Shown here in pieces: positions 455 through 36,558 of a stretch of 64,000 bases of DNA (the stretch's first letter is position 1; every line of letters begins with the position of its first letter). The notes under the pieces are model-generated. The model did no database searches and was not told where the DNA came from. It was given only the letters and a program-made list of their open reading frames with translations. This stretch comes from Heligmosomoides polygyrus polygyrus (taxonomy: Eukaryota > Nematoda > Chromadorea > Rhabditida > Heligmosomidae), in the NCBI GenBank assembly GCA_947396885.1, contig OX377201.1, positions 63,524,983 through 63,588,982 on the forward strand. The letters are read 5' to 3'. The position numbers and the translations under genes are program-made.

Positions 455-1055
455 AAACTTGCACATCAATCCGTGCCGAGACTGCTTTCGTCTCTGAGGG
501 GACATCGGAGATGGGTTGTGCGCTCTTCGAGCGCACAACTCGGCTAGGGAAGGGGCTCCGGGGTGTGGGCCATCCAGGCGGCTCGTGCCAAGAATGCTTT
601 CGTCGCTGAGGGGACATCGGAGATGGGTTGTGCGCTCTTCGAGCGCACAACTCGGCTAGGGAAGGGACTCCGGGGTGTGGGCCATCCAGGTGGCTCGTGC
701 CAAGAATGCTTTCGTCGCTGAGGGGGACATCGGAGATGGGTCGTGCGCTCTTCGAGCGCACAACTCGGCTAGGGAAGGGGCTCCGGGGTGTGGGCCATCC
801 AGGCGGCTCGTGCCAAGAATGCTTTCGTCGCTGAGGGGGACATCGGAGATGGGTCGTGCGCTCTTCGAGCGCACAACTCGGCTAGGGAAGGGACTCCGGG
901 GTGTGGACCATCCAGGCGGCTCGTGCCAAGAATGCTTTCGTCGCTGAGGGGGACATCGGAGATGGATTGTGCGCTCTTCGAGCGCACAACTCGGCTAGGG
1001 AAGGGACTCCAGGGTGTAGTGCGTCCAAGGTGCTCGTGCAGAAACTGCTCCCGTC
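455..1055. repeat. 112-113 bp tandem array with a hairpin in each unit
   Basis: Unit starts (GAGGGG/GAGGGGG-ACATCGGAG) fall at 496, 608, 720, 833 and 946, giving periods of 112, 112, 113 and 113 bp, with degenerate flanking units. Each unit carries GTGCGCTC-TTC-GAGCGCAC, an 8-11 bp perfect stem with a 3-base loop. Open frames across the array exist on both strands only because the unit length is near a multiple of three. They repeat the same peptide and look like by-products, not genes. Confidence 0.85.
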
Positions 1056-2400: not shown

Positions 2401-2478
2401 AGGAGGTATTCACCGCAGTTAAACAGAGGTACAGCACGCCAACGTGCTTGGCGTTTCCAACTTCGTGCATTCCAACAT

Positions 2479-4443
2479 TGTCAAGTTTGGCGGACTTGGA
2501 TTATTATTTGATTGAGTTGCGGGAGGAAGTATGGATGATGACGAAATACTTGTCAACTCCCGACTCAGTCCGCAGGTGGAAGCAGGGTTATTTATGCCAA
2601 CTGTCCTGCCTGCTTCTCCACCCGGAGAACTTAGTCGGTGTCCTTCTGCGCCGTCGCTAGGCGAACAGGCAGAAGGGCTTCTAGAAGCACTTAAACCGTG
2701 CAGGTCTACCGACATTATGTTCTTCTTCGTTAAGCAAGCTCTTCTGAAGCTACCGGTACCTAATCCGACTTGACAACTCAGAGAAGGTCACCTAAGGTCC
2801 CCTAGTGTTTCTTTTATCTCCCCTCTAGATACCAGACGGCTGAACCGTTTGTCAGACGGTGATGACACCGTAGGTTTTATAAAGTTTATATAACAAAGTA
2901 AAAACTTCAAACACAAATGCAACGGTTCACGACAACAACAACTTCGAATGCGAAAACGACAGCAAGGTAAAATGGTATGAGAATGAAATCAATTTATCTA
3001 AAAGATGTGAATGAGTTCAACGGGAACTAAGTAGGCTCGACCGGGTTAAATGAACTCAAGATGATCAAATGTATGCCACCAAGACTTGGTTAGTATGTGA
3101 GAATTAGCTGGGGCTCGTCCGATTGTTGAGGTTTGGAATCCGACCGGCTGTCTCGCTCTTAACTCCCTCTAGGCTCCACTCACGCAACTAGGGCGGATGG
3201 GATAAGGGAGGAGCAGGGATAGGCCACCAGGTGGAGACCAACTCAGTTAGGTACTTACCTAATCCTCAAGGACAAATCTCACTTAGCAGTGAGGCCGACT
3301 ACCATGCAGCGGTAGCTGCGTAGCCCAAGCCCGGGGAAAATGCGGGGCGAAGAAGGTACGTGACGTACCAGTAAAAAGCCCACCTAGGAGGGTCAGGCTA
3401 AGGCAACACCACTAGGAGTCGCTAGCCGACTGCTAAATAGTTAGACTCTCTCTACTAGATGGAGCTACGCCCGAGAAGCACCCCCTTTATTTCTCACAGG
3501 TACTAGCGCCTACTAAAATTCAGGCTGACTACACTCGTCCCGACCAGGCTAGGAGGCGGACGCGCAACTCCTGCCGAGATTCACTGGGGAGCCTACACTA
3601 CGGGGGAGCCGGGTGCGAAGACCCTTAAGAGCTACCTAGACTCTTCCCCTGACTTAGTGGGTCTCCACCCAATGAATACCCCTACTGCGGAGGCTCAAGT
3701 TTTGGCCTACTACACAAAGAAGGGGAATTGGGCTAACAAGTGTTAGCCACGAATAGCCCGGAGCCGGCTGTGACGCTTATGGCTGGGCACACGGTTGGTA
3801 GGAGAGGTAATTTAATAATGTCAGCCGAAACAGTGGGAGAGGATGAGGGGACCGTGGGGAGTGGAGCACAGAAGAAATCAAGAGCTCTAAGGCTCCTGGT
3901 CGCCACGTTCAGCGAAACACTCACTCTCAGCGGAGGGGGAATATGCCTAACCCTACCGCTGCCTTATTCGGGGGGGACACCTGTTAGCGTCCCGGGGCTA
4001 CGAGAGGCGAAGCTAGTGTGACGGCGCCGGGTCTAACCGACGACGCAAAACCTAGCCCGTAATGATGTGCTCGTTACACTCCGAATGTCTCCGGGTGAGA
4101 TGTTGGACCCCTTTTCCCACTTGAAAACGGTTAGAGGATAAAACGAAATGAAGAAAACGAGAAGAATGCGGCTCTCAAGGCCGGACCGGCTGCTTCGCAG
4201 CGGGGAACCAAGACTACTGTTCTGGGGACCCGGGCCGCTGCGCGTGGTCCGACGCGGTGCGGCTCCCGCGGTGTCCGATCCATGTGGATCAACCCCCTTG
4301 ACCATGTTCGGACGGGCCCCGGCTATGACAGGAGGCAAGGTCCGAAGAGAGAGTACTCTGACAGAGGAGGGTGCCGACGGTAAGAGAGATATCGACACCG
4401 ATCGGCCTGGGGGATCCAATGGACGCTTGACCTGGACTTGACA
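2479..4443 (-). repeat. LTR copy 1 (3' LTR of the minus-strand element)
   Basis: It is 1965 bp, TGTCAAGT...ACTTGACA, GC-rich and unusually long. On the minus strand it contains the first 79 codons of gag (2715 down to 2479), but here that frame runs out into flanking DNA and ends at 2419 after a few unrelated residues. This is expected for a 3' LTR whose 5' counterpart is coding. Confidence 0.9.
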
Positions 4444-4457
4444 TGCCCCCCACTTTT
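4444..4457 (-). other. Polypurine tract, unit 1
   Basis: On the minus strand AAAGTGGGGGGCA lies immediately before the LTR start TGTCAAGTCC. This is the position and composition expected for the plus-strand priming site of an LTR element, and it fixes the element on the minus strand. Confidence 0.75.
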
Positions 4458-5116
4458 GAAAAGAGGCTGCTCCACTCAGCCCAAGAGTTCTTTCAGGGAC
4501 TCTATTTAAGGGGAAAAATTCAGTTTGATGGGGCTGGCGTCCATTGGTCCTATTATGCACATAATAAGTGCTACTATGCCTGAACTCCTGATATGGTTAG
4601 TACATTGGCTCTTATAACAAATCTAGAGTATCACGTGGAGCAATGTCATTAACCGACATGTATGGCGACATCAATGGCCGCTGGTGAACTACATCTAGAT
4701 AAAATCAGTGAATGGATCAGCTAGAAGAGGTTGAAGAAAGGGCCGAGGAGAACAATGGCTGATCCGCTGGCCAATGAGAATTCAGGCAGGGTACGTAACC
4801 GTATGTTTGGGAAGAATGGGCTTCAAACGGAGAAGAGAAGCAACAACCTATCAACACAAGAACTGTGGAAGGGATACGGTTACGGCTCATGTGGGTTTGA
4901 ACGGGTATGGCGAAGAGCTGAGCTCACTCTCGCACCCGAGAAGGCCTCGCCTCCGGCTTTAGCGTCGGCCAATAGATTCGGCACAGCATTTGCGGCCCCC
5001 GACAACGCCACTGCTGCACACCGCTACCATACCAACCCGGCCATATAGATTCCATCGAAACGGCTCGTGCGATAGCTGAAGGAAAAGCTTTCAAAACACA
5101 AGACTTAATGGGGCAA

Positions 5117-7996
5117 TCAGAGTACAGAAGGAATGAGAATAGTACCTGATGCTAGTCGATTGGATGGAACCTTTTGTGGTCGTTTACGCTTACGCTTACG
5201 TTTACGTGGCCTACCTCGGCGCCGGCCACGAACGGTAGTTGGTATAGGAGAATTACTGATACCAGCTGGCACTTTGGCCAGGTGGTCGCACTGAACTCGC
5301 ACGGGCTCTTCATTTTTACCTAACGGTTGTATGACCGGAACAACAGTGTCTCCGTTGGTAATGTGGCATGAACCAGGCCCTATCCGGCTGTCTTTGGAAC
5401 AGAAACTTTTATCTGTGTCCTTACCTGGATGGGTTTCATGCGTGTTAGCAACGGTGAGGGGAGCTATGGTTACCGTTGACTTTGAACGTGCTTTCCGAAC
5501 TCTACCACGTTGCCCTTTCCGGGTAGGCGGTTCATTCCTGCTCTTATGGGTCAGCTGCCAGCCCGAGTGGTTAAATTGAATACCTACTCCCAGAGCTTGT
5601 AAAGCGTTAGTACCCAAGAGAATGAGTTGCCTATCGGCTTTCTGAATATGGAACTGAACCTTTGCCTCTTTGCCTCCCGGCTGGAGCGCCACTTGGGTAT
5701 CAAGACGCATTAGAAACTTCATGCGGTTCCCGGATACATCCAAGATACTGTTATCCCTCGGCGGCCCCAGTAAGGTGACCATGGATTCCAGATCCTCTCC
5801 CTTTTCTTTCAAGGGGTACAGGAATCCCGTGGGAATGATTGAAAGCACGGATCCCGTGTCTATCAGAGCTTTCGCTGTGGTACCCATTATCCGGATAGTA
5901 CAATGGCATTGCTTGCCAAAGGGTTTTGTCGGGACACCTGGAACGGCTATCGCGGCACACCATGAATCAAGAAGCGTTGCAAGAGACTGCTTCTGGCCGC
6001 TTCTGTTTGACCTAGACGGCTCTGTCACTACCATGTTTAGTGGCCTAATGCCTCCCGGTTGTGTTGCCTGTCCATTACTGGGTCTAATAGGCTGAGGCTT
6101 GTGACGTCGTCTGTTACGTCTACGGCCATTCCGGCTTCTGTTCGACCATCCGGTTGTACTTGGTGGAGGACTACTAGTGAAGCTATCCCCTGAAGAAGCT
6201 TCATATGCCGTGGAGGGTACACCGGCTTGCCGACGATTTCCCGTGGGTGACTGGATCGCTTCCTGGGCTATGCGTACCCGCTCGAGCCGTAAAGCTACAG
6301 TTCGGACTTCTTGAAACACTTGGCCCTCCGGGGCTTCAAGTGCAGCGAGCATGTAGTACGAGTCCTTCCAATGGGCTAGGCACTCATACAGTTTGCTTCC
6401 AAGCTGGAAGTCCGTTGCCTGCTCCGGCACCATGCGCTTCGCAATCTGCCTCATGCGACACACAAAGTCCGCTACGGATTCGTCGTCCATAATCCGGAGA
6501 TTCTTCCAGTCCATTTCGGCTTGCAGACGTTCACCTGGGGTTCGACGGGCCTCCCGGAGGAATTTCACGACCGACTGATACGAAGCATTGCGGCCAATCT
6601 CCGGCGACGTATCGATTAGGGCTCTAATCGTTCCTCCTAAGTGCGTCAACAAAATCTTCTTCCTGTCTTCGTCACTCCATAGGGTGCCCGGGTATTTCAC
6701 TTCTAACCGACGAATGAAGTCGTCGAAGGATGAAGACCCATCATAAACACCTACGTCGGCTACCGACTGGGTTTTGAGCACCTCTTTTAATGCGCATAGG
6801 ACATCGTCCTTCCTCGGCGAACAATTACTACAGGTACTCTTGTTGTCAGTATATGACTGGACGCTTAGATTCTCAGCGGAGTTACCCGTCGTTCGACATC
6901 GAGAAGTAGTCTCTGACAATGTCCGCAATGACGATCCCGATCCCTGACGATGGCGGAATGTCTTGGTGGCATCTTCTCTGTCAATCGGCCGCGACCGGCT
7001 CAATCCACGGGACTGCATGGATTTCTCACATGCGTTAGGGTCCGAACTCCTTGTTTTGGTCCTGGACTTACCCGGGAGAGGGATTGGCGGCGATGCTACA
7101 GGCCTGACCGGCTCCCCATGTTTCACTCGGTCTTGATGCCCACCCGGCTGCGTCCGCAACGTCGCTACTTGGCGCTGAAGCTGTGCGATGACCGCCTCCC
7201 TCTCTGCTATGGTAGCTAGGATATGGTCGGTATCGCAGTGCAACGCACAAGCAATGACGTCAAGGCGCAAGCCACTTTCTAACAGCGCAGGAAGTTTTTG
7301 ACACAAGTCCTGGCCGGACATTCCCGAGATCTGCGTCATCTTTGCTCCTAACAGCGGGTCTTGGCCCGACTGAAGAAGCGCGTTCCTTGCCGCATTGGCT
7401 GCTTTTTGGATTTCCTCTAGTATGCTTCGGCGTTTGTGTTGCGAAAGGTGGCGAAAATGCGCGGTTAGCGCTCTGTCGCAAGTGGTTACCACGTTCTGGA
7501 TCAAGGCTGCTGCTGAGTCCATCTCATTCGGAGCCGACTCCGGCTGCACTTGGTCTGGTACTACTCCCCAGCTCCTGTGCGCCTCTGGTGCTCGTTGAGG
7601 TATCTCTAAGCCAGCCGGCTTAAGCGCATCCTGCAGGGCTTTCTGTGCCAGCTGCACGGCTGTTTGCAGCACTTGTGAGTCCCAATTTTGGTAGCTCATA
7701 TCCTGAAACATGTCCTGCTGAAGTTGTGTTCCGGTTCCTGAGGGTCGGATTGGCCCCCATGTCAAGTTTGGCGGACTTGGATTATTATTTGATTGAGTTG
7801 CGGGAGGAAGTATGGATGATGACGAAATACTTGTCAACTCCCGACTCAGTCCGCAGGTGGAAGCAGGGTTATTTATGCCAACTGTCCTGCCTGCTTCTCC
7901 ACCCGGAGAACTTAGTCGGTGTCCTTCTGCGCCGTCGCTAGGCGAACAGGCAGAAGGGCTTCTAGAAGCACTTAAACCGTGCAGGTCTACCGACAT
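5117..7996 (-). CDS. Gag-aspartic protease polyprotein, copy 1
   Basis: Intact 959-codon frame. Residues 1-79 are encoded inside the LTR, the rest in the internal region. Low-complexity Ser/Pro N-terminus; alanine-rich helical stretch about 105-215; predicted short coiled coil about 258-283 (a leucine/isoleucine heptad-like run); retrotransposon Gag-like core about 400-575 (YDGSSSFDDFIRRLEVKYPG is typical of nematode LTR-element Gag); arginine-rich segment about 618-632 in place of a CCHC zinc knuckle, which I do not find; retropepsin-like domain about 690-810 with active-site LIDTGS at 711-716 and ILLG near 792. The C-terminal tail (922-940) is strongly basic and contains GRPRK, an AT-hook-like motif. 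Gag would build particles and the protease would mature them. No pol frame follows, only about 670 bp of non-coding DNA before the polypurine tract. The start at 7996 is the first ATG of the frame and lies downstream of a TATA-like site. Confidence 0.88.
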   Translation of the reverse strand: MSVDLHGLSASRSPSACSPSDGAEGHRLSSPGGEAGRTVGINNPASTCGLSRELTSISSSSILPPATQSNNNPSPPNLTWGPIRPSGTGTQLQQDMFQDMSYQNWDSQVLQTAVQLAQKALQDALKPAGLEIPQRAPEAHRSWGVVPDQVQPESAPNEMDSAAALIQNVVTTCDRALTAHFRHLSQHKRRSILEEIQKAANAARNALLQSGQDPLLGAKMTQISGMSGQDLCQKLPALLESGLRLDVIACALHCDTDHILATIAEREAVIAQLQRQVATLRTQPGGHQDRVKHGEPVRPVASPPIPLPGKSRTKTRSSDPNACEKSMQSRGLSRSRPIDREDATKTFRHRQGSGSSLRTLSETTSRCRTTGNSAENLSVQSYTDNKSTCSNCSPRKDDVLCALKEVLKTQSVADVGVYDGSSSFDDFIRRLEVKYPGTLWSDEDRKKILLTHLGGTIRALIDTSPEIGRNASYQSVVKFLREARRTPGERLQAEMDWKNLRIMDDESVADFVCRMRQIAKRMVPEQATDFQLGSKLYECLAHWKDSYYMLAALEAPEGQVFQEVRTVALRLERVRIAQEAIQSPTGNRRQAGVPSTAYEASSGDSFTSSPPPSTTGWSNRSRNGRRRNRRRHKPQPIRPSNGQATQPGGIRPLNMVVTEPSRSNRSGQKQSLATLLDSWCAAIAVPGVPTKPFGKQCHCTIRIMGTTAKALIDTGSVLSIIPTGFLYPLKEKGEDLESMVTLLGPPRDNSILDVSGNRMKFLMRLDTQVALQPGGKEAKVQFHIQKADRQLILLGTNALQALGVGIQFNHSGWQLTHKSRNEPPTRKGQRGRVRKARSKSTVTIAPLTVANTHETHPGKDTDKSFCSKDSRIGPGSCHITNGDTVVPVIQPLGKNEEPVRVQCDHLAKVPAGISNSPIPTTVRGRRRGRPRKRKRKRKRPQKVPSNRLASGTILIPSVL
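7742..7759 (-). other. Putative primer-binding site, unit 1
   Basis: Directly after the LTR end (minus strand ...CTTGACA) comes TGGGGGCCAATCCGACCC. It begins with the TGG expected opposite a tRNA 3'-CCA end and sits with zero spacing. I cannot name the tRNA. The site is inside the gag frame because gag begins upstream in the LTR. Confidence 0.5.
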
Positions 7997-9724
7997 TATG
8001 TTCTTCTTCGTTAAGCAAGCTCTTCTGAAGCTACCGGTACCTAATCCGACTTGACAACTCAGAGAAGGTCACCTAAGGTCCCCTAGTGTTTCTTTTATCT
8101 CCCCTCTAGATACCAGACGGCTGAACCGTTTGTCAGACGGTGATGACACCGTAGGTTTTATAAAGTTTATATAACAAAGTAAAAACTTCAAACACAAATG
8201 CAACGGTTCACGACAACAACAACTTCGAATGCGAAAACGACAGCAAGGTAAAATGGTATGAGAATGAAATCAATTTATCTAAAAGATGTGAATGAGTTCA
8301 ACGGGAACTAAGTAGGCTCGACCGGGTTAAATGAACTCAAGATGATCAAATGTATGCCACCAAGACTTGGTTAGTATGTGAGAATTAGCTGGGGCTCGTC
8401 CGATTGTTGAGGTTTGGAATCCGACCGGCTGTCTCGCTCTTAACTCCCTCTAGGCTCCACTCACGCAACTAGGGCGGATGGGATAAGGGAGGAGCAGGGA
8501 TAGGCCACCAGGTGGAGACCAACTCAGTTAGGTACTTACCTAATCCTCAAGGACAAATCTCACTTAGCAGTGAGGCCGACTACCATGCAGCGGTAGCTGC
8601 GTAGCCCAAGCCCGGGGAAAATGCGGGGCGAAGAAGGTACGTGACGTACCAGTAAAAAGCCCACCTAGGAGGGTCAGGCTAAGGCAACACCACTAGGAGT
8701 CGCTAGCCGACTGCTAAATAGTTAGACTCTCTCTACTAGATGGAGCTACGCCCGAGAAGCACCCCCTTTATTTCTCACAGGTACTAGCGCCTACTAAAAT
8801 TCAGGCTGACTACACTCGTCCCGACCAGGCTAGGAGGCGGACGCGCAACTCCTGCCGAGATTCACTGGGGAGCCTACACTACGGGGGAGCCGGGTGCGAA
8901 GACCCTTAAGAGCTACCTAGACTCTTCCCCTGACTTAGTGGGTCTCCACCCAATGAATACCCCTACTGCGGAGGCTCAAGTTTTGGCCTACTACACAAAG
9001 AAGGGGAATTGGGCTAACAAGTGTTAGCCACGAATAGCCCGGAGCCGGCTGTGACGCTTATGGCTGGGCACACGGTTGGTAGGAGAGGTAATTTAATAAT
9101 GTCAGCCGAAACAGTGGGAGAGGATGAGGGGACCGTGGGGAGTGGAGCACAGAAGAAATCAAGAGCTCTAAGGCTCCTGGTCGCCACGTTCAGCGAAACA
9201 CTCACTCTCAGCGGAGGGGGAATATGCCTAACCCTACCGCTGCCTTATTCGGGGGGGACACCTGTTAGCGTCCCGGGGCTACGAGAGGCGAAGCTAGTGT
9301 GACGGCGCCGGGTCTAACCGACGACGCAAAACCTAGCCCGTAATGATGTGCTCGTTACACTCCGAATGTCTCCGGGTGAGATGTTGGACCCCTTTTCCCA
9401 CTTGAAAACGGTTAGAGGATAAAACGAAATGAAGAAAACGAGAAGAATGCGGCTCTCAAGGCCGGACCGGCTGCTTCGCAGCGGGGAACCAAGACTACTG
9501 TTCTGGGGACCCGGGCCGCTGCGCGTGGTCCGACGCGGTGCGGCTCCCGCGGTGTCCGATCCATGTGGATCAACCCCCTTGACCATGTTCGGACGGGCCC
9601 CGGCTATGACAGGAGGCAAGGTCCGAAGAGAGAGTACTCTGACAGAGGAGGGTGCCGACGGTAAGAGAGATATCGACACCGATCGGCCTGGGGGATCCAA
9701 TGGACGCTTGACCTGGACTTGACA
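7760..9724 (-). repeat. LTR copy 2 (shared middle LTR)
   Basis: It serves as the 5' LTR of the left unit and the 3' LTR of the right unit, the signature of a tandem made by LTR-LTR recombination. It supplies the start codon and first 79 codons of the gag frame at 5117-7996. Its visible features match LTR 1 and LTR 3 at the 5281-bp offset. Confidence 0.9.
8166..8175 (-). promoter_or_regulatory. Candidate TATA element in LTR (also 2885-2894 and 13447-13456)
   Basis: The minus strand reads TTATATAAAC followed by TTTATAAAACC, about 170 bases before the gag ATG at 7996. It is the only clear TATA-like cluster in the LTR near gag. If used, transcription would start roughly 140 bases before the ATG, so the start codon would lie in the R/U5 part of the LTR. 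Inferred from position only. Confidence 0.35.
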
Positions 9725-9738
9725 TGCCCCCCACTTTT
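9725..9738 (-). other. Polypurine tract, unit 2
   Basis: Same purine run (AAAGTGGGGGGCA on the minus strand) abutting the middle LTR, 5281 bp from the first copy. Confidence 0.75.
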
Positions 9739-10397
9739 GAAAAGAGGCTGCTCCACTCAGCCCAAGAGTTCTTTCAGGGACTCTATTTAAGGGGAAAAAT
9801 TCAGTTTGATGGGGCTGGCGTCCATTGGTCCTATTATGCACATAATAAGTGCTACTATGCCTGAACTCCTGATATGGTTAGTACATTGGCTCTTATAACA
9901 AATCTAGAGTATCACGTGGAGCAATGTCATTAACCGACATGTATGGCGACATCAATGGCCGCTGGTGAACTACATCTAGATAAAATCAGTGAATGGATCA
10001 GCTAGAAGAGGTTGAAGAAAGGGCCGAGGAGAACAATGGCTGATCCGCTGGCCAATGAGAATTCAGGCAGGGTACGTAACCGTATGTTTGGGAAGAATGG
10101 GCTTCAAACGGAGAAGAGAAGCAACAACCTATCAACACAAGAACTGTGGAAGGGATACGGTTACGGCTCATGTGGGTTTGAACGGGTATGGCGAAGAGCT
10201 GAGCTCACTCTCGCACCCGAGAAGGCCTCGCCTCCGGCTTTAGCGTCGGCCAATAGATTCGGCACAGCATTTGCGGCCCCCGACAACGCCACTGCTGCAC
10301 ACCGCTACCATACCAACCCGGCCATATAGATTCCATCGAAACGGCTCGTGCGATAGCTGAAGGAAAAGCTTTCAAAACACAAGACTTAATGGGGCAA

Positions 10398-13277
10398 TCA
10401 GAGTACAGAAGGAATGAGAATAGTACCTGATGCTAGTCGATTGGATGGAACCTTTTGTGGTCGTTTACGCTTACGCTTACGTTTACGTGGCCTACCTCGG
10501 CGCCGGCCACGAACGGTAGTTGGTATAGGAGAATTACTGATACCAGCTGGCACTTTGGCCAGGTGGTCGCACTGAACTCGCACGGGCTCTTCATTTTTAC
10601 CTAACGGTTGTATGACCGGAACAACAGTGTCTCCGTTGGTAATGTGGCATGAACCAGGCCCTATCCGGCTGTCTTTGGAACAGAAACTTTTATCTGTGTC
10701 CTTACCTGGATGGGTTTCATGCGTGTTAGCAACGGTGAGGGGAGCTATGGTTACCGTTGACTTTGAACGTGCTTTCCGAACTCTACCACGTTGCCCTTTC
10801 CGGGTAGGCGGTTCATTCCTGCTCTTATGGGTCAGCTGCCAGCCCGAGTGGTTAAATTGAATACCTACTCCCAGAGCTTGTAAAGCGTTAGTACCCAAGA
10901 GAATGAGTTGCCTATCGGCTTTCTGAATATGGAACTGAACCTTTGCCTCTTTGCCTCCCGGCTGGAGCGCCACTTGGGTATCAAGACGCATTAGAAACTT
11001 CATGCGGTTCCCGGATACATCCAAGATACTGTTATCCCTCGGCGGCCCCAGTAAGGTGACCATGGATTCCAGATCCTCTCCCTTTTCTTTCAAGGGGTAC
11101 AGGAATCCCGTGGGAATGATTGAAAGCACGGATCCCGTGTCTATCAGAGCTTTCGCTGTGGTACCCATTATCCGGATAGTACAATGGCATTGCTTGCCAA
11201 AGGGTTTTGTCGGGACACCTGGAACGGCTATCGCGGCACACCATGAATCAAGAAGCGTTGCAAGAGACTGCTTCTGGCCGCTTCTGTTTGACCTAGACGG
11301 CTCTGTCACTACCATGTTTAGTGGCCTAATGCCTCCCGGTTGTGTTGCCTGTCCATTACTGGGTCTAATAGGCTGAGGCTTGTGACGTCGTCTGTTACGT
11401 CTACGGCCATTCCGGCTTCTGTTCGACCATCCGGTTGTACTTGGTGGAGGACTACTAGTGAAGCTATCCCCTGAAGAAGCTTCATATGCCGTGGAGGGTA
11501 CACCGGCTTGCCGACGATTTCCCGTGGGTGACTGGATCGCTTCCTGGGCTATGCGTACCCGCTCGAGCCGTAAAGCTACAGTTCGGACTTCTTGAAACAC
11601 TTGGCCCTCCGGGGCTTCAAGTGCAGCGAGCATGTAGTACGAGTCCTTCCAATGGGCTAGGCACTCATACAGTTTGCTTCCAAGCTGGAAGTCCGTTGCC
11701 TGCTCCGGCACCATGCGCTTCGCAATCTGCCTCATGCGACACACAAAGTCCGCTACGGATTCGTCGTCCATAATCCGGAGATTCTTCCAGTCCATTTCGG
11801 CTTGCAGACGTTCACCTGGGGTTCGACGGGCCTCCCGGAGGAATTTCACGACCGACTGATACGAAGCATTGCGGCCAATCTCCGGCGACGTATCGATTAG
11901 GGCTCTAATCGTTCCTCCTAAGTGCGTCAACAAAATCTTCTTCCTGTCTTCGTCACTCCATAGGGTGCCCGGGTATTTCACTTCTAACCGACGAATGAAG
12001 TCGTCGAAGGATGAAGACCCATCATAAACACCTACGTCGGCTACCGACTGGGTTTTGAGCACCTCTTTTAATGCGCATAGGACATCGTCCTTCCTCGGCG
12101 AACAATTACTACAGGTACTCTTGTTGTCAGTATATGACTGGACGCTTAGATTCTCAGCGGAGTTACCCGTCGTTCGACATCGAGAAGTAGTCTCTGACAA
12201 TGTCCGCAATGACGATCCCGATCCCTGACGATGGCGGAATGTCTTGGTGGCATCTTCTCTGTCAATCGGCCGCGACCGGCTCAATCCACGGGACTGCATG
12301 GATTTCTCACATGCGTTAGGGTCCGAACTCCTTGTTTTGGTCCTGGACTTACCCGGGAGAGGGATTGGCGGCGATGCTACAGGCCTGACCGGCTCCCCAT
12401 GTTTCACTCGGTCTTGATGCCCACCCGGCTGCGTCCGCAACGTCGCTACTTGGCGCTGAAGCTGTGCGATGACCGCCTCCCTCTCTGCTATGGTAGCTAG
12501 GATATGGTCGGTATCGCAGTGCAACGCACAAGCAATGACGTCAAGGCGCAAGCCACTTTCTAACAGCGCAGGAAGTTTTTGACACAAGTCCTGGCCGGAC
12601 ATTCCCGAGATCTGCGTCATCTTTGCTCCTAACAGCGGGTCTTGGCCCGACTGAAGAAGCGCGTTCCTTGCCGCATTGGCTGCTTTTTGGATTTCCTCTA
12701 GTATGCTTCGGCGTTTGTGTTGCGAAAGGTGGCGAAAATGCGCGGTTAGCGCTCTGTCGCAAGTGGTTACCACGTTCTGGATCAAGGCTGCTGCTGAGTC
12801 CATCTCATTCGGAGCCGACTCCGGCTGCACTTGGTCTGGTACTACTCCCCAGCTCCTGTGCGCCTCTGGTGCTCGTTGAGGTATCTCTAAGCCAGCCGGC
12901 TTAAGCGCATCCTGCAGGGCTTTCTGTGCCAGCTGCACGGCTGTTTGCAGCACTTGTGAGTCCCAATTTTGGTAGCTCATATCCTGAAACATGTCCTGCT
13001 GAAGTTGTGTTCCGGTTCCTGAGGGTCGGATTGGCCCCCATGTCAAGTTTGGCGGACTTGGATTATTATTTGATTGAGTTGCGGGAGGAAGTATGGATGA
13101 TGACGAAATACTTGTCAACTCCCGACTCAGTCCGCAGGTGGAAGCAGGGTTATTTATGCCAACTGTCCTGCCTGCTTCTCCACCCGGAGAACTTAGTCGG
13201 TGTCCTTCTGCGCCGTCGCTAGGCGAACAGGCAGAAGGGCTTCTAGAAGCACTTAAACCGTGCAGGTCTACCGACAT
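10398..13277 (-). CDS. Gag-aspartic protease polyprotein, copy 2
   Basis: Second intact 959-codon frame, with the same translation as the frame at 5117-7996 over its full length. It starts in LTR 3 (13277) and runs through the right internal region. Domain order is the same: Ser/Pro N-terminus, helical region, Gag core about 400-575, arginine-rich linker, LIDTGS protease at 711-716, basic GRPRK tail. Two uninterrupted copies with no difference in the protein fit very recent activity or recombination, or an assembly duplication. Like copy 1 it lacks reverse transcriptase and integrase. Confidence 0.88.
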   Translation of the reverse strand: MSVDLHGLSASRSPSACSPSDGAEGHRLSSPGGEAGRTVGINNPASTCGLSRELTSISSSSILPPATQSNNNPSPPNLTWGPIRPSGTGTQLQQDMFQDMSYQNWDSQVLQTAVQLAQKALQDALKPAGLEIPQRAPEAHRSWGVVPDQVQPESAPNEMDSAAALIQNVVTTCDRALTAHFRHLSQHKRRSILEEIQKAANAARNALLQSGQDPLLGAKMTQISGMSGQDLCQKLPALLESGLRLDVIACALHCDTDHILATIAEREAVIAQLQRQVATLRTQPGGHQDRVKHGEPVRPVASPPIPLPGKSRTKTRSSDPNACEKSMQSRGLSRSRPIDREDATKTFRHRQGSGSSLRTLSETTSRCRTTGNSAENLSVQSYTDNKSTCSNCSPRKDDVLCALKEVLKTQSVADVGVYDGSSSFDDFIRRLEVKYPGTLWSDEDRKKILLTHLGGTIRALIDTSPEIGRNASYQSVVKFLREARRTPGERLQAEMDWKNLRIMDDESVADFVCRMRQIAKRMVPEQATDFQLGSKLYECLAHWKDSYYMLAALEAPEGQVFQEVRTVALRLERVRIAQEAIQSPTGNRRQAGVPSTAYEASSGDSFTSSPPPSTTGWSNRSRNGRRRNRRRHKPQPIRPSNGQATQPGGIRPLNMVVTEPSRSNRSGQKQSLATLLDSWCAAIAVPGVPTKPFGKQCHCTIRIMGTTAKALIDTGSVLSIIPTGFLYPLKEKGEDLESMVTLLGPPRDNSILDVSGNRMKFLMRLDTQVALQPGGKEAKVQFHIQKADRQLILLGTNALQALGVGIQFNHSGWQLTHKSRNEPPTRKGQRGRVRKARSKSTVTIAPLTVANTHETHPGKDTDKSFCSKDSRIGPGSCHITNGDTVVPVIQPLGKNEEPVRVQCDHLAKVPAGISNSPIPTTVRGRRRGRPRKRKRKRKRPQKVPSNRLASGTILIPSVL
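13023..13040 (-). other. Putative primer-binding site, unit 2
   Basis: TGGGGGCCAATCCGACCC on the minus strand immediately after the LTR 3 boundary, identical in position and sequence to unit 1. Confidence 0.5.
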
Positions 13278-15005
13278 TATGTTCTTCTTCGTTAAGCAAG
13301 CTCTTCTGAAGCTACCGGTACCTAATCCGACTTGACAACTCAGAGAAGGTCACCTAAGGTCCCCTAGTGTTTCTTTTATCTCCCCTCTAGATACCAGACG
13401 GCTGAACCGTTTGTCAGACGGTGATGACACCGTAGGTTTTATAAAGTTTATATAACAAAGTAAAAACTTCAAACACAAATGCAACGGTTCACGACAACAA
13501 CAACTTCGAATGCGAAAACGACAGCAAGGTAAAATGGTATGAGAATGAAATCAATTTATCTAAAAGATGTGAATGAGTTCAACGGGAACTAAGTAGGCTC
13601 GACCGGGTTAAATGAACTCAAGATGATCAAATGTATGCCACCAAGACTTGGTTAGTATGTGAGAATTAGCTGGGGCTCGTCCGATTGTTGAGGTTTGGAA
13701 TCCGACCGGCTGTCTCGCTCTTAACTCCCTCTAGGCTCCACTCACGCAACTAGGGCGGATGGGATAAGGGAGGAGCAGGGATAGGCCACCAGGTGGAGAC
13801 CAACTCAGTTAGGTACTTACCTAATCCTCAAGGACAAATCTCACTTAGCAGTGAGGCCGACTACCATGCAGCGGTAGCTGCGTAGCCCAAGCCCGGGGAA
13901 AATGCGGGGCGAAGAAGGTACGTGACGTACCAGTAAAAAGCCCACCTAGGAGGGTCAGGCTAAGGCAACACCACTAGGAGTCGCTAGCCGACTGCTAAAT
14001 AGTTAGACTCTCTCTACTAGATGGAGCTACGCCCGAGAAGCACCCCCTTTATTTCTCACAGGTACTAGCGCCTACTAAAATTCAGGCTGACTACACTCGT
14101 CCCGACCAGGCTAGGAGGCGGACGCGCAACTCCTGCCGAGATTCACTGGGGAGCCTACACTACGGGGGAGCCGGGTGCGAAGACCCTTAAGAGCTACCTA
14201 GACTCTTCCCCTGACTTAGTGGGTCTCCACCCAATGAATACCCCTACTGCGGAGGCTCAAGTTTTGGCCTACTACACAAAGAAGGGGAATTGGGCTAACA
14301 AGTGTTAGCCACGAATAGCCCGGAGCCGGCTGTGACGCTTATGGCTGGGCACACGGTTGGTAGGAGAGGTAATTTAATAATGTCAGCCGAAACAGTGGGA
14401 GAGGATGAGGGGACCGTGGGGAGTGGAGCACAGAAGAAATCAAGAGCTCTAAGGCTCCTGGTCGCCACGTTCAGCGAAACACTCACTCTCAGCGGAGGGG
14501 GAATATGCCTAACCCTACCGCTGCCTTATTCGGGGGGGACACCTGTTAGCGTCCCGGGGCTACGAGAGGCGAAGCTAGTGTGACGGCGCCGGGTCTAACC
14601 GACGACGCAAAACCTAGCCCGTAATGATGTGCTCGTTACACTCCGAATGTCTCCGGGTGAGATGTTGGACCCCTTTTCCCACTTGAAAACGGTTAGAGGA
14701 TAAAACGAAATGAAGAAAACGAGAAGAATGCGGCTCTCAAGGCCGGACCGGCTGCTTCGCAGCGGGGAACCAAGACTACTGTTCTGGGGACCCGGGCCGC
14801 TGCGCGTGGTCCGACGCGGTGCGGCTCCCGCGGTGTCCGATCCATGTGGATCAACCCCCTTGACCATGTTCGGACGGGCCCCGGCTATGACAGGAGGCAA
14901 GGTCCGAAGAGAGAGTACTCTGACAGAGGAGGGTGCCGACGGTAAGAGAGATATCGACACCGATCGGCCTGGGGGATCCAATGGACGCTTGACCTGGACT
15001 TGACA
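13041..15005 (-). repeat. LTR copy 3 (outer 5' LTR)
   Basis: Rightmost LTR, ending ACTTGACA at 15005 and followed by the ACAT target duplication. The flank then diverges from the sequence that follows LTR 1 and LTR 2, which fixes the boundary. Confidence 0.9.
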
Positions 15006-15009
15006 ACAT

Positions 15010-22490: not shown

Positions 22491-23455
22491 GGCTACGACG
22501 GGCAAAGCCCGCAACCGACGATGGGTTGTGGCGACCCTAGCAGGCTCTCGGTTGGGTTGGGTTTCTGTCCCCACATGGCTCACCACACACAACGCCGGCG
22601 AAGCCGGCTAGCCTAGCGTGGCCCGCCCGGCCAGAGTCGGGTGCGGGCGAAGCCCGCAACCGACGCTGGGTTGTGGGGACCCTAGCAGGCTCTCGGTTGG
22701 GTTGGGTTTCTGACCCCACATGGCTCACCACACACGACGCCGGCGAAGCCCGACTCTGGCCGGGCTAGCCTAGCGTGGCCCGCCCGGCCAGAGTCAGGTG
22801 CGGGCGAAGCCCGCAACCGAAGCTGGGTTGTGGGGACCCTGGCAGGCTCTCGGTTGGGTTGGGTTTCTGACCCCACATGGCTCACCATACACGACGCCGG
22901 CGAAGCCCGCAACCGACGCTGGGTTGTGGGGACCCTAGCGGGCTCGAGGTTGGGTTGGGTTTCTGATCCCACATGGCTCACCACACACGACGCCGGCGAA
23001 GCCGGCTAGCCTAGCGTGGCCCGCCCGGCCAGAGTCGGGTGCGGGCGAAGCCCGCAACCGACGCTGGGTTGTGGGGACCCTAGCAGGCTCTCGGTTGGGT
23101 TGGGTTTCTGACCCCACATGGCTCACCACACACGACGCCGGCGAAGCCGGCTAGCCTAGCGTGTCCCGCCCGGCCAGAGTCGGGTGTGAGCGAAGCCCGC
23201 AACCGACGCTGGGTTGTGGGGACCCTGGCAGGCTCTCGGTTGGGTTGGGTTTCTGACCCCACATGGCTCACCACACACGACGCCGGCGAAGCCCGCAACC
23301 GACGCTGGGTTGTGGGGACCCTAGCGGGCTCGAGGTTGGGTTGGGTTTCTGATCCCACATGGCTCACCACACACGACGCCGGCGAAGCCGGCTAGCCTAG
23401 CGTGGCCCGCCCGGCCAGAGTCGGGTGCGGGCGAAGCCCGCAACCGACGCTGGTC
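22490..23455. repeat. Higher-order minisatellite with two unit lengths
   Basis: GC-rich array. The landmark CCACATGGCTCACCA recurs at spacings of about 145 or 97 bp. The long form carries an extra segment of about 48 bp (GGCTAGCCTAGCGTGGCCCG and following). The units contain CGGCGAAGCC palindromic pieces and GGTTGGGTTGGG. Repetitive peptides appear in several frames but vary with the array and are not a credible protein. Confidence 0.8.
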
Positions 23456-32919: not shown

Positions 32920-35110
32920 TTATTGGCTTTCGTGCTCCTTCAGGTTACGGAGACTTTTCGTGGACCTCCATATCATTGAAAATACCCGGAGTAGTAAATG
33001 AATGGTTGTCTTACAAAGAGCAAACGCCACTTTTGCCAGTGTAATCAGGATAACTGGACCGAACAAGTACGATATCACTGACAGTACTAATGTTACGGTC
33101 ACAGCTCTAAGAGCCGACTTCCAGTGAGCGCGAGCGATCTCGACCAAGGGATGGAGATCCGGCAATTGTATACTTGCCAATGACTCCATCCAGGTTGGTT
33201 CACGATAACTGTCGTGGTTGAAGTGAAATACCGATTCATACGATAGAGTATGGTATTTTAGGGTACCATTTGGGCTCAGCATGACCTTCTCGCTTCCACA
33301 GTAGGTGAAGCAGTTATGTTTGACCACTGCTGTGTCAAAGCTGAACTTCACCTTGGTTTCTGGGTTTGAGGGTCCACATTCTATGGAGAATGAGTGATGA
33401 ACGCACCGTGATCGTTGTAGGATCTTTCGTTTCACAATGAGATATCGTTACCGCACCTTGAATGCAGCTGTAGCATCCAGCTAGCTGGTCAAGTGACGCA
33501 TAACATTTCTCCTCTTGGGTGAAACTAGTGCTACCCAACAAGAGTTTTGACTGGACCGTGATTATGGTCTCGATGTCTGTCATGAAAGCGACTATGCCAT
33601 CTTCAGTGCTGTGAATTTCCACAGATGGTGTAATTAGCGGCAATTTGTGACCATCATCCATAGCAACTTTCCGAAGCGTGTTGTCAGGACAGTGGCAATG
33701 GTGTTTAGTCCAACCAGTATTGCAGTCACATATTACCTTATTTGCGCAGTTGCGGAAATTATTCACCGCGTCGAGGCGTGTAGGACATTCAACCGGTACG
33801 ACAAACTGGTCCGGAAGAAGGACTGACGTGTTTCTTGACACAGCAAACCTTCTGGTAAGTATTGCCAGTGAAGGTTTTTGTACGGAGACAGCCGTAATGC
33901 TGAAGTTATGGAACGTACTTGTCATATATGGTTCCAGGAGTAGAGTTTCCTCCTTATTTTCTTTCATGAGGGTGCTTTCTAGCTCCACCTGGATATCAGG
34001 TATCCGCTCTCTGCATTCGATAACTTCGAATACAGCCCTTGAAATGGGGATGTGAGCCACCTTATAGAATGTGCAGGCAGGCGAGAGCAGGAAACATCCA
34101 CAGCTAACACCACCGCATGTGTACTGGCATCCGGAATACCCTGGGTACTTTCACGCCCTAGATAATTCAGGAACGGTATCATTTCGTCCGAGTGTGTCAC
34201 ACACATTCCCGGTACAGGATCCTGCCTGTGCGCATCTCACGCCGGTGTACACTTTGTGTTCCATGCTCTTTGTAAAGAATGTGGACACTTTAGCACACTT
34301 GAGGGTGGTTGATCTAACCCTCATTTTGAGCAGTCCCACAGGTCTGTTTTCGTGACGGATTTCAATGCACTGTTCGTTTTGAATCCTGTTGAACAGGAGT
34401 TCTCTACTGAACTCGTAGGTGCAGACACCGCATTGGCTACAAACAATGTCAGCTGCATGTCTTGTAAACCCGTGTTGGCAGCTCTCAACCGGCCCACATG
34501 TGATAATCGCTATGCACAGTGTGATAAGGATACCACCGTCCAGTGGGGAAGGATTCCAGGAATGAAGTCCAATATTTTCCACGTGGTCACCACTGATACA
34601 GTTTATCTGGACAGCTGGTGCAGCCACACTACTCCTGCTCTTGATAAGGTATATGATGATACCAACGAGAGTAAACATGAATAGCGCTAGCAGATACGTG
34701 ATAACGGCTACGCTTGCAATTGCTCCAACCGGCCAACAGTGTGGATTTCCTAGCAATGATATGCTAAGTAACGTGTTGGATCTCGAACAGAAATCGGGAT
34801 TAGCACAGATTGTGACAAATGTGCCCTTTCCATGCTTCAACTTAACGTCAGTTGTGCTGTATAGCGGGGAGATTGGAAGCTTGTAAGTCTTTCCAAGTCC
34901 ATCGCCTTGGAATATTTTGAACTCTTCATTGAAGCATAGTTCAAAAGTGGCATTCCTTCCAGGTATTTTCACTATGCCATTCTCACAACTAGCGTAAGTT
35001 GCGTCTGTCTTAGCTAGCAGAGCAGCAAATGTGATTATCATAAGCATTATATTTGCTTTTGCTCCTTTTATGAAGGAAAGTGGATTTCCCCTTTGCTTTG
35101 ACGTCAATGT
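32920..35110 (-). pseudogene. env: Phlebovirus Gc-like envelope (class II fusion protein) pseudogene
   Basis: The envelope begins in the same open frame as integrase, at about 35,070, with a hydrophobic leader, followed by a short Cys-containing ectodomain, a transmembrane segment around 34,700, a second hydrophobic segment around 34,530, and then a cysteine-rich domain. The spacing of CSQCGVC, a later GVRCAQAGSC and, in the next frame, GCYSCIQGA (near 33,470) follows the Phlebo_G2 family. The chain passes through three frames (35,110-34,151; 34,060-33,335; 33,435-32,920), so this copy cannot make a full protein. A C-terminal membrane anchor lies near 33,080-32,990 with a short basic tail. 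In intact relatives this glycoprotein would mediate membrane fusion. The assignment rests on cysteine pattern and context. Confidence 0.75.
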
Positions 35111-36544
35111 GATGATGTCAAGTGAGTCAGGCACCTGCTCGCATGCCACGAGCTGAGTGGAGCTAGGCTCTTCTAAGCTGTTCTCGAACTCTCTGATAAC
35201 TTCGTATGCCTTGGTTTTTGCCGACCTCGGCGGAAGTGTTCGGATTTGTTCAGATGTGTTCTCACGTGATGGTGATGCTTGTACATCATTGTCCGATGTA
35301 TTTTCACTACATCGAACTTCAAGGGCATATAGCTTGTTTAGAGGTCTCTGCAGGACATGTCCGTTTGGAGTAAGGACTTTAGCTGACCTCACCAGGCCAT
35401 CGTGACTGACGGTTAGATCAACCACTTTCCCATACACCCAGCATCCTTGGGGCAACAGCTCTTGTTCTATAAGGACGATTTCACCCTTTTCTGGGATCGA
35501 CCTTGATATGTGCCTACGCTGTTTTAGATAAAGCTTTTGCCGTTCTCTAAGCAAGGTGAGGTACTCGCAACTCCATTCTGCCCAAAATTTGTTGGCAATC
35601 TGTTCAGAGTAGCTTAGCGCTTCCAAGGCTTGCTGCCTTGTTTTTATGTACTCCGTCTCATATAATGGGTCATCCGGGTCATTCAATGTTTTAGAATCTT
35701 GTACGGCAAATTTTACGTTTCCTTGAAGGATATCGACCGGTCTTAATGGGATCTCCATTAAATCGGTAGTGCTTATCTTTGTAAGTGGTCGTGTATTGAT
35801 AGTTGCTTCGATAGTAGCAACGACCGTGCACATTTGGCCGAAATTTAGTTTCTTTCGACCGATTGATTTGCGCATGCACCGTTTTACGGAACCGACCAGT
35901 CTTTCCCAGACACCGCCCATCCATGGACTAGCGGGAGGATTGAAAACCCACTGTATACCGTTATCGGCAATATAGCTCATTACGGAATGCCCTGAGCTGT
36001 TGGAACTTGATAGTTCTTCGATTATCTTTGAGCCTAATCGAAAATTGGTTCCACAATCAGAACGAATTAAGTGAGGAACACCTCTTCTAGAAATAAACCG
36101 CACGAAGCAGTTCAGAAAGGCTCCAGCGGACATGTCTTCCACTACTTCTAGGTGAAACGCTCTGGTCGTTAAGCATGTGTACAGACAGATTCGTCAGATT
36201 TCGCTTTCGTCCGAACTTGATGTGAACGGACCGATAAAGTCACATCTCACATTTCGGAATGGTTTTGTTATCACCACCCTATCTGCCGGTAGCGATGGCA
36301 TAGCGGGGGGACCAAATGGTAGTCCTTGCCATCTTTTACAGACCATGCAATTTCTTAGGTAGGTCTTGAAGGATCCAGACGCACGAGGGATCCAGTACTT
36401 TTGCCTGGCCAGTGATAAGGTCTGATCTTTGCCACAGTGAAAGTTATCATTGTGAATGGCTGTTAATACGAGCCTTGTTGCATCTCCTCTGTTTGGGAGA
36501 TAGATTGGGGACTTCGAGTCCGCTGGAATGCATGCGTGCTGCAT
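35110..36544 (-). pseudogene. pol: BEL/Pao integrase (zinc-binding, catalytic core, DUF5641)
   Basis: The H2C2 zinc-binding part is at about 36,470-36,330 (HNDNFHCGKDQT, then NCMVCKRW). The catalytic core follows: first Asp in CDFIGPF (about 36,230), second in SDCGTNF (about 36,060), catalytic Glu in GGVWERLVG (about 35,910). Then TINTRPLT and the DUF5641 C-terminal domain (RPVDILQGNVKF, then GEIVLIEQ). All DDE residues are present, but an in-frame TGA at 36,191-36,193 separates the first Asp from the rest. The frame continues without a stop into the envelope. The enzyme would insert element cDNA into chromosomes. Confidence 0.85.
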
Positions 36545-36558
36545 TCGCGATATATGCC

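What the first reader, a model, noticed from the sequence alone, without database searches (positions are those of the whole stretch)
5117..7996. LTR element that encodes only Gag plus protease and no polymerase
The internal region is 3316 bp and is almost filled by one intact gag-protease frame. No RT, RNase H or integrase is present, yet the frame, primer site, polypurine tract and LTR ends are intact. This implies selection for supplying its own particle protein while borrowing enzymes, a design reminiscent of plant TR-GAG elements. I know of no nematode counterpart.
Basis: partly seen in the sequence, partly recalled or inferred. Interest (0 to 1): 0.75.

Follow-up and report, generated by a model that had tools for sequence, protein, structure and literature searches.

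The report
Pol-less nematode retrotransposon with helper
A jumping element in a parasitic-worm genome has lost its copying enzymes but kept its particle-shell and protease gene, has spread as its own family, and shares its ends with a related element that still carries the enzymes; the lifestyle is known from plants and mice, and the evidence of swapped ends makes this a clear animal case.

Summary
Window 2479-15005 (minus strand) is a tandem dimer with three identical 1965-bp LTRs, two identical 3316-bp internal regions and one 4-bp target duplication. Each unit encodes a 959-aa Gag-protease frame that starts 79 codons inside the LTR and runs through the primer site. No RT, RNase H or integrase core is encoded.
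It is a deletion derivative, but an amplified one. In the host (a nematode, probably Heligmosomoides) 17 loci, picked by a query across the junction, share the same in-frame pol deletion. The nearest pol-bearing relatives found are three elements plus fragments; two have an intact 1951-aa gag-pro-pol frame (P1).
LTR and gag trees conflict: the window group's LTRs match P1 (91-94% where alignable), its gag-pro matches other pol-less copies (93-99%) and P1 only at 75% (dS 0.9). LTRs were exchanged, implying co-packaging. Purifying selection is supported between window and other pol-less groups (omega 0.34-0.47 outside recombinant blocks) but unresolved within the window group.
Best reading: a semi-autonomous Ty3 element supplying Gag-Pro, probably in cis, and borrowing enzymes from P1-like helpers, as in wheat Sabrina_SA, Arabidopsis Athila and mouse IAP-I-delta-1.

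The parts
2479..4443 (-). LTR (3' LTR of unit 1), 1965 bp, TGTCAAGT...ACTTGACA ends
   Evidence: 100% identical to 7760-9724 and 13041-15005
4444..7759 (-). internal region, unit 1 (3316 bp)
5117..7996 (-). gag-protease frame, 959 aa, unit 1; ends in a tail homologous to the C-terminal end of the helper's integrase
7760..7996 (-). LTR-encoded first 79 codons of the frame
7742..7759 (-). primer-binding site TGGGGGCCAATCCGACCC, translated in frame as WGPIRP; identical in helper P1
6386..6649 (-). capsid-like stretch (Retrotrans_gag, weak)
   Evidence: P1's frame scores E 2.6e-4, also below the cut-off
5579..5908 (-). retropepsin domain with ALIDTGS and ILLGTNAL motifs
5316..5330 (-). junction of the in-frame deletions: 36 nt and the RT-RNaseH-integrase block (about 2.9 kb), at a TAGG..AA microhomology
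4879..5058 (-). remnant (60 aa, 30% identity, E 1.7e-5) of the helper's second ORF
4444..4503 (-). 60 nt beside the polypurine tract that match helper P1 at 85%, unlike the rest of the 3' untranslated region
4444..4457 (-). polypurine tract AAAAGTGGGGGGCA
7760..9724 (-). LTR shared by the two units
9725..13040 (-). internal region, unit 2, identical to unit 1
10398..13277 (-). gag-protease frame, unit 2, 959 aa
13041..15005 (-). outer LTR (5' LTR of the array)
2475..2478 (.). target-site duplication ACAT (+ strand), left side
15006..15009 (.). target-site duplication ACAT (+ strand), right side

Best explanation
A semi-autonomous Ty3/gypsy LTR retrotransposon family. SHOWN: an ancestor with gag-pro-RT-RNaseH-integrase plus a second ORF lost the enzyme block in frame, keeping gag, protease and the integrase tail as one 959-aa frame. 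This pol-less form is present at 17 loci read. It shares LTR ends, primer site and most of its LTR with pol-bearing element P1, although its gag-pro split from P1 long before, so LTRs have been exchanged between pol-less and pol-bearing elements. INFERRED: the RNA is translated from an AUG in the LTR to Gag-Pro, enters particles together with the RNA and Gag-Pol of P1-like helpers, is reverse-transcribed by the helper's enzyme from the shared primer site, and is inserted by its integrase at 4-bp-staggered sites. One template switch beside the polypurine tract in a mixed particle, followed by second-strand transfer at the identical primer site, gives a pol-less body with helper LTRs, and the breakpoints sit there. 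The frame is kept probably because an element's own Gag favours its own RNA (cis preference); a purely shared Gag would leave each copy's frame without selection.
For: Same junction in the 16 fetched pol-less loci and the window. Nine window-group loci with LTRs; TSDs ATGT, CTGC, ACCC, GACC, TCCT, GTGT read in 6 of 9. A 959-966-aa frame from the LTR start is intact in 6 of 17 loci, counting the window. Pol-bearing P1 at C52:41.88 Mb and C39:75.55 Mb with an intact 1951-aa frame and Pfam RT, RNase H, integrase; LTR pair 98.7% over the 1493 bp readable at C52; same PBS and end motifs. Identity matrix: window vs P1 LTR 91-94% over the alignable U3 and U5, gag-pro 75%; window vs groups B, C, D LTR 69-84%, gag-pro 93-96%. 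Topology tests: pol-less monophyly rejected in U3 (delta lnL 296.5, AU p 1.3e-5) and U5 (delta lnL 51.2, KH p 1e-4); window group + P1 rejected for gag-pro (delta lnL 925, AU p 7e-5). Group D's U3 pairs with the other helper P2 at 90.9% (97% support). dS window-P1 0.92 over the gag-pro frame. Selection outside recombinant blocks: window vs B omega 0.34 and 0.40 (L016, L018; p 2e-4, 8e-4), vs D 0.36 (p 1e-5), vs C 0.47 (p 1e-4), fixed A/B differences N 10: S 14 (p 0.004); the LTR-less B copies among themselves show no constraint (omega 1.3-1.5, nonsense changes present).
Against: No expression, particle or transposition data. Within the window group the excess of synonymous changes lies in two recombinant blocks of gag (internal nt 186-425, 800-1225) of unknown origin; outside them N 30: S 20, omega 0.64, p 0.08, and the few changes shared by two or more copies there are N 7: S 2 (omega 1.4). 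So recent selection is not shown, and an unsampled pol-bearing donor of those blocks is possible. The direction of LTR exchange is unresolved. The first 90 bp of the window LTR have no match in P1 at my settings. The 17 loci were found with a query across the junction, and genome searches score only the best candidates, so a pol-bearing copy with this gag could have been missed. The priming tRNA was not identified. Gag and protease Pfam hits of the window frame are below curated cut-offs.
Confidence: 0.76

Rival explanations
1. Plain parasite: the element is moved entirely by helper Gag-Pol and its gag-pro frame is open only because the copies are young; the protein does nothing.
For: LTR pairs of the window, L011 and L012 are 100% identical; within the window group outside recombinant blocks omega is 0.64 with p 0.08, and shared changes are N 7: S 2.
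Against: Between the window group and other pol-less groups omega is 0.34-0.47 outside the blocks (p 1e-5 to 8e-4), A/B fixed differences N 10: S 14, and no nonsense variant was counted in register in the window group (though L021 reads with three stops and L011 has a frameshift), while LTR-less B copies show no constraint and carry nonsense changes.
Confidence: 0.2
2. Interfering or host-useful Gag: the pol-less copies are kept because their Gag blocks or dampens pol-bearing relatives, to the benefit of host or element.
For: Pol-less loci outnumber close pol-bearing ones about 17 to 3, fragments apart, in searches that score only the best candidates; precedents for Gag-only restriction are recalled, from no call.
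Against: Window-group copies keep the cis signals and have inserted recently, with near-identical LTRs and duplications; conservation at one site in sister species was not tested.
Confidence: 0.07
3. Simple dead-end deletion copies: each locus is an independent internal deletion of pol-bearing elements.
For: The family does descend from a pol-bearing ancestor and keeps a remnant of the second ORF.
Against: Identical double junction in the 17 loci read, and gag-pro 25% diverged from P1 and 26% from P2.
Confidence: 0.03

Closest known systems
RLG_Sabrina_SA (wheat, 'semi-autonomous' Gypsy; PMC9744471, passages seen)
   Same: one intact gag-protease frame, no RT or integrase, thought to be moved by an autonomous Gypsy partner
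   Different: plant; the Sabrina family has over ten thousand full-length copies; in barley the proposed partner has very little sequence homology, whereas here helper LTRs are 91-94% identical; here the frame also carries an integrase tail and starts inside the LTR
RLG_Quinta with helper RLG_Cereba (wheat; PMC11302176, passages seen)
   Same: pol-less element keeps gag; shares LTR ends and PBS with its helper; parts of the LTRs similar while gag has diverged; template switching invoked for its recombinants
   Different: plant centromere element, gag plus an unknown domain; no protease mentioned for it in the passages
Pol-less Athila lineages (Arabidopsis; PMC2410132, passages and section 8 seen)
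   Same: gag kept without pol, under purifying selection, with recombination between lineages
   Different: plant; env-like frames also kept; no gag-protease-integrase-tail fusion in what I saw
TR-GAG (plants; PMC8704663, passages seen)
   Same: LTR element with a single Gag frame and a related autonomous element; one shown to move
   Different: GAG only, Copia example; plants
IAP I-delta-1 (mouse; PMC6466679, passages seen)
   Same: deletion giving a fused gag-pol frame; non-autonomous yet responsible for most new IAP insertion mutations; the fusion protein acts in cis
   Different: endogenous retrovirus of mouse, 1.9-kb deletion that removes part of gag and pol; needs both gag and pol in trans
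Cer1 (C. elegans Ty3/gypsy; PMC10309623, passages seen)
   Different: autonomous; zinc-finger Gag; no homology of P1's ORF to CERV was tested

Membership tests
Semi-autonomous gag-pro LTR retrotransposon (as Sabrina_SA) | paired LTRs, PBS and PPT present | tested here: met
Semi-autonomous gag-pro LTR retrotransposon (as Sabrina_SA) | one intact gag-protease frame, no RT, RNase H or integrase core | tested here: met
   absence shown against the helper frame
Semi-autonomous gag-pro LTR retrotransposon (as Sabrina_SA) | amplified as a family rather than a lone deletion | tested here: met
Semi-autonomous gag-pro LTR retrotransposon (as Sabrina_SA) | an autonomous partner with the same PBS and LTR ends | tested here: met
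Semi-autonomous gag-pro LTR retrotransposon (as Sabrina_SA) | mobilisation by the partner in living cells | not testable with these tools
   LTR exchange implies co-packaging but is indirect
Ty3/gypsy | helper domain order protease-RT-RNase H-integrase | tested here: met
   residues 720-820 (protease, below cut-off), 1063-1222, 1285-1420, 1549-1716
TR-GAG | encodes GAG only | tested here: not met
   protease domain present
IAP I-delta-1 | endogenous retrovirus of mouse | tested here: not met
   helper has Ty3-type domain order, host carries nematode SL1
Pol-less Athila type | gag under purifying selection while pol-less | tested here: inconclusive
   met between groups outside recombinant blocks; not resolved within the window group

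The most novel reading that the evidence does not exclude
Pol-less Gag-Pro elements can be a long-lived lineage that outlives particular helpers: the gag-pro body stays its own clade while the LTRs, and with them the LTR-encoded first 79 residues of Gag, are repeatedly swapped with whichever pol-bearing lineage shares the particle (window group with P1, group D's U3 with P2). Starting the Gag frame inside the LTR would make each such swap also match the N-terminus of Gag to the helper.
Probability: 0.4. Interest if true: 0.65.

Novelty: new member of a known kind. Interest (0 to 1): 0.5.

Why it matters
Non-autonomous elements are usually seen as coding-dead hitchhikers. Here an animal Ty3 family keeps its capsid-protease gene after losing all replication enzymes, beside candidate helpers with intact frames, so cis versus trans use of Gag can be tested in one genome. 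LTR and gag trees that conflict this strongly are a sequence-only readout of which RNAs shared a particle. There is also a lead: in Heligmosomoides bakeri, secreted exWAGO small RNAs come preferentially from non-autonomous LTR elements and families without RT (PMC13195028, abstract and passages seen); this family is of that class by structure, though whether it is a source was not tested.

Tried and rejected
Structure prediction of the capsid-like part (231 aa, no alignment) gave pLDDT 48 and was not used. Homologue search in the large protein set gave one protein among 7991 scored candidates, from Heligmosomoides polygyrus; by eye it is of the pol-less type, but whether pol follows on its contig is not known. 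A first selection test (omega 0.47, p 4e-5) looked decisive until the changes proved to be clustered in recombinant blocks; it was redone without them and the claim narrowed. The stop counts printed include gap codons and were not used; two searches were. Group B (6 loci) was first taken as an LTR family: it is not. Its element begins and ends inside the LTR (position about 1036/1035), has no LTR pair in 6 of 6 loci, and sits in a repeat whose two flanks lie 4 bp apart at 28 other loci by position (lists capped at 40 each); at the one such site whose letters were read, the 4 bp are missing from the occupied sites and no target duplication is seen. It spread with that repeat and serves as the unconstrained control. 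The primer tRNA search did not complete.
Full report
WHAT IS THERE. The window holds, on the minus strand, a tandem dimer of an LTR element: LTRs at 2479-4443, 7760-9724 and 13041-15005 (1965 bp each) and internal regions at 4444-7759 and 9725-13040 (3316 bp each), all copies 100% identical. One 4-bp duplication (ACAT on the + strand) flanks the whole array, so it is probably one insertion, either of a dimeric cDNA or followed by unequal exchange; an assembly artefact cannot be excluded. Each unit has one frame of 959 aa (5117-7996 and 10398-13277). Its first 79 codons are in the LTR and it reads through the primer site, so the start lies in the LTR, as in yeast Ty1 (recalled). Pfam finds a retropepsin and a Retrotrans_gag stretch, both weak; a profile of four relatives matches retroviral-like aspartic protease structures at E 8e-5, and DTGS and ILLGTNAL motifs are present. 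No RT, RNase H or integrase core is encoded.

HOST. The host genome (656 Mb, 1130 contigs) has 2235 exact copies of the nematode SL1 leader and none of the reversed control. The only protein relative found is named Heligmosomoides polygyrus, and its sequence is of the pol-less type by eye. So: nematode, probably Heligmosomoides.

COPIES. A DNA search with the end of the frame, a query that spans the junction, gave 17 loci (18 units) with near-complete matches among 30 rows. Twenty stretches were fetched, of which L009-L024 are these pol-less copies. With the window they are group A, 9 loci (window, L009-L015, L021); group B, 6 (L016-L020, L024); C, L022; D, L023. One more copy, at C39:89.038 Mb (95% over residues 1-499), abuts an assembly gap and was not counted. 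In group A, LTR pairs are 99.8-100% identical in 7 of 9 loci, 95.1% in L015, and only part of the pair (869 bp, 99.1%) is seen in L021; 4-bp duplications were read in 6 of 9. Eight rows of the protein search, from 7 loci, are free of stops over all 880 residues of the internal frame (which scored 52 of 1395 candidates); 6 of 17 loci keep the whole frame from the LTR start. An LTR search shows, besides paired LTRs about 5.28-5.31 kb apart, several unpaired ones (40 of 142 candidates scored).

HELPERS. L025 (C52) and L026 (C39) carry an intact frame of 1951 aa with the same gag-pro followed by RT, RNase H and integrase. I call this P1. Its LTR is 2023 bp with the same end motifs, its primer site is identical over the stretch read, and its LTR pair at C52 is 98.7% identical over the 1493 bp readable before an assembly gap. 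A third pol-bearing element, P2 (contig C931, L033, read only to base 9900 of 26158), is 91-94% identical to P1 in gag-pol; in my mapping it has an in-register stop, two insertions and 79 gap positions. With a 1.5-kb pol query the rest are one fragment at 86% (708 nt), short pieces (85-153 nt) at 74-89%, and longer matches at 64-72% (40 of 95 candidates scored). [quoted passage not shown] homology not tested).

ORIGIN. Aligned to P1, the pol-less frame has lost 36 nt and then the whole RT-RNase H-integrase block, the 3' edge lying near the end of the integrase, with TAGG..AA present at both edges. The 16 fetched loci show the same junction (L020 with a further 9-nt gap, L016 and L019 with a 1-nt gap beside it), as does the window. 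The 3' untranslated region keeps a 60-residue remnant of the second ORF (E 1.7e-5). So there was one origin, from an element with gag-pro-pol and the second ORF.

LTR EXCHANGE. Pairwise identities: window vs P1, U3 93.8%, U5 91.9%, gag-pro 75.2%; window vs group B (L017), 84.2, 81.1, 96.0%; vs D, 78.7, 79.9, 94.7%; D vs P2, U3 90.9%, gag-pro 72.6%. The U3 stretch of P1 leaves out the first 90 bp of the LTR, which had no match, and U5 here ends before the frame. Pol-less monophyly is strongly rejected for U3 (delta lnL 296.5) and U5 (51.2), and a window-group-plus-P1 clade is rejected for gag-pro (925); the free gag-pro tree attaches the helper branch inside group A with 47% support, no better than pol-less monophyly. 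Synonymous divergence window-P1 is 0.92 over the frame (1.13 in the N-terminal part of gag) but 0.21 in the LTR-encoded codons. The matching stretch extends 60 nt inside the 3' LTR (the purine-tract side) and stops at the primer site. One template switch beside the purine tract plus normal second-strand transfer at a shared primer site would do this. The direction of exchange is not resolved, and the LTR-encoded codons of the window are as close to group B as to P1, so that piece may have moved earlier. Within gag, too, group A copies are mosaics.

SELECTION. All group A polymorphism: N 59, S 55, no nonsense counted, omega 0.47, p 4e-5 in 7 copies; 9 loci give N 66, S 57, omega 0.50, p 1e-4; group B: N 58, S 18, 4 nonsense, omega 1.5; wrong-frame controls show no constraint. 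But most group A differences lie in two blocks brought in by recombination. Outside them: group A alone N 30, S 20 (omega 0.64, p 0.08), of which changes shared by two or more copies are N 7, S 2; window vs B 0.34 (L016, p 2e-4) and 0.40 (L018, p 8e-4); window vs D 0.36 (p 1e-5); window vs C 0.47 (p 1e-4); B vs D 0.52 (p 0.02), B vs C 0.56 (p 0.004), C vs D 0.63 (p 0.02); fixed A/B differences 10 N to 14 S (p 0.004); B alone N 38, S 14, 2 nonsense. B, C and D have decayed since insertion, which raises these values. Selection on gag-pro during pol-less life is therefore supported at the depth of the A/B/C/D splits and undecided for the last few rounds.

GROUP B AS CONTROL. These six loci are permuted copies (half LTR, internal, half LTR) inside another repeat whose flanks lie 4 bp apart at 28 other loci. 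They have no LTR pair and evolve without visible constraint.

COMPARISON. The design and lifestyle match plant semi-autonomous elements (Sabrina_SA, Quinta, Athila, TR-GAG) and, in mechanism, mouse IAP-I-delta-1, whose fused protein acts in cis (what I saw of each paper is listed under Closest known systems). In the listings I saw no description of such a family in nematodes (15 of 47 listed; 3 of 3; 10 of 78; 1 of 1) or of an animal gag-pro Ty3 family (12 of 12; 1 of 1; 12 of 56; 15 of 20). Only titles and starts of abstracts were looked at there, in a library of open-licence papers. Hence: new member of a known kind, with unusually direct evidence for helper sharing.

Noticed in passing
window 32920-38046 (-): Bel/Pao-type element in separate frames: Pao peptidase/RT piece, and two frames matching the phlebovirus-type G2 glycoprotein domain (E 1e-24, 3e-24), i.e. 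an env-like gene split between frames. Described only.
   Followed up: partly
L016-L020, L024 (e.g. L017 1846-7217): Group B: pol-less element opened inside the LTR (pos. ~1036/1035), no LTR pair; carried and amplified inside another abundant repeat with non-LTR RT frames nearby; no target duplication and 4 bp of target missing at the one empty site read. The break may mark the RNA start/end (R) or a one-LTR circle; unexplained.
   Followed up: partly
L014 (3' LTR followed by about 160 bp of internal sequence, then an assembly gap); L011 (3' LTR followed by 13 nt of primer site): Traces of tandem arrangement at other group A loci, like the window dimer.
   Followed up: no
L029 6743-7819 (-); remnant in L028 3722-4174: 358-aa ORF of helper P1 between pol and 3' LTR, no Pfam match; position like Cer1 CERV.
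   Followed up: partly
L018 6129-6251, L017 2757-2875: Short tandem duplications around the primer site in group B, keeping the reading frame open in L018.
   Followed up: no
L034 3903-5378 (+): A 42%-identical related Gag-protease frame, in a stretch flanked by 970-bp repeats, has a CX2CX4HX4C zinc knuckle; the window family and P1 have none at that place, the window an arginine-rich stretch.
   Followed up: no
window 472-1017 and 22499-23453: Tandem arrays with periods of 113 bp and about 96-386 bp.
   Followed up: no
L026 6223 / L032 1858 and 5069: P1 copy at C39 has its 5' LTR interrupted one base upstream of the gag ATG by about 3.2 kb of other DNA; the LTR resumes with a 9-bp overlap, as after a transposon insertion.
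   Followed up: no
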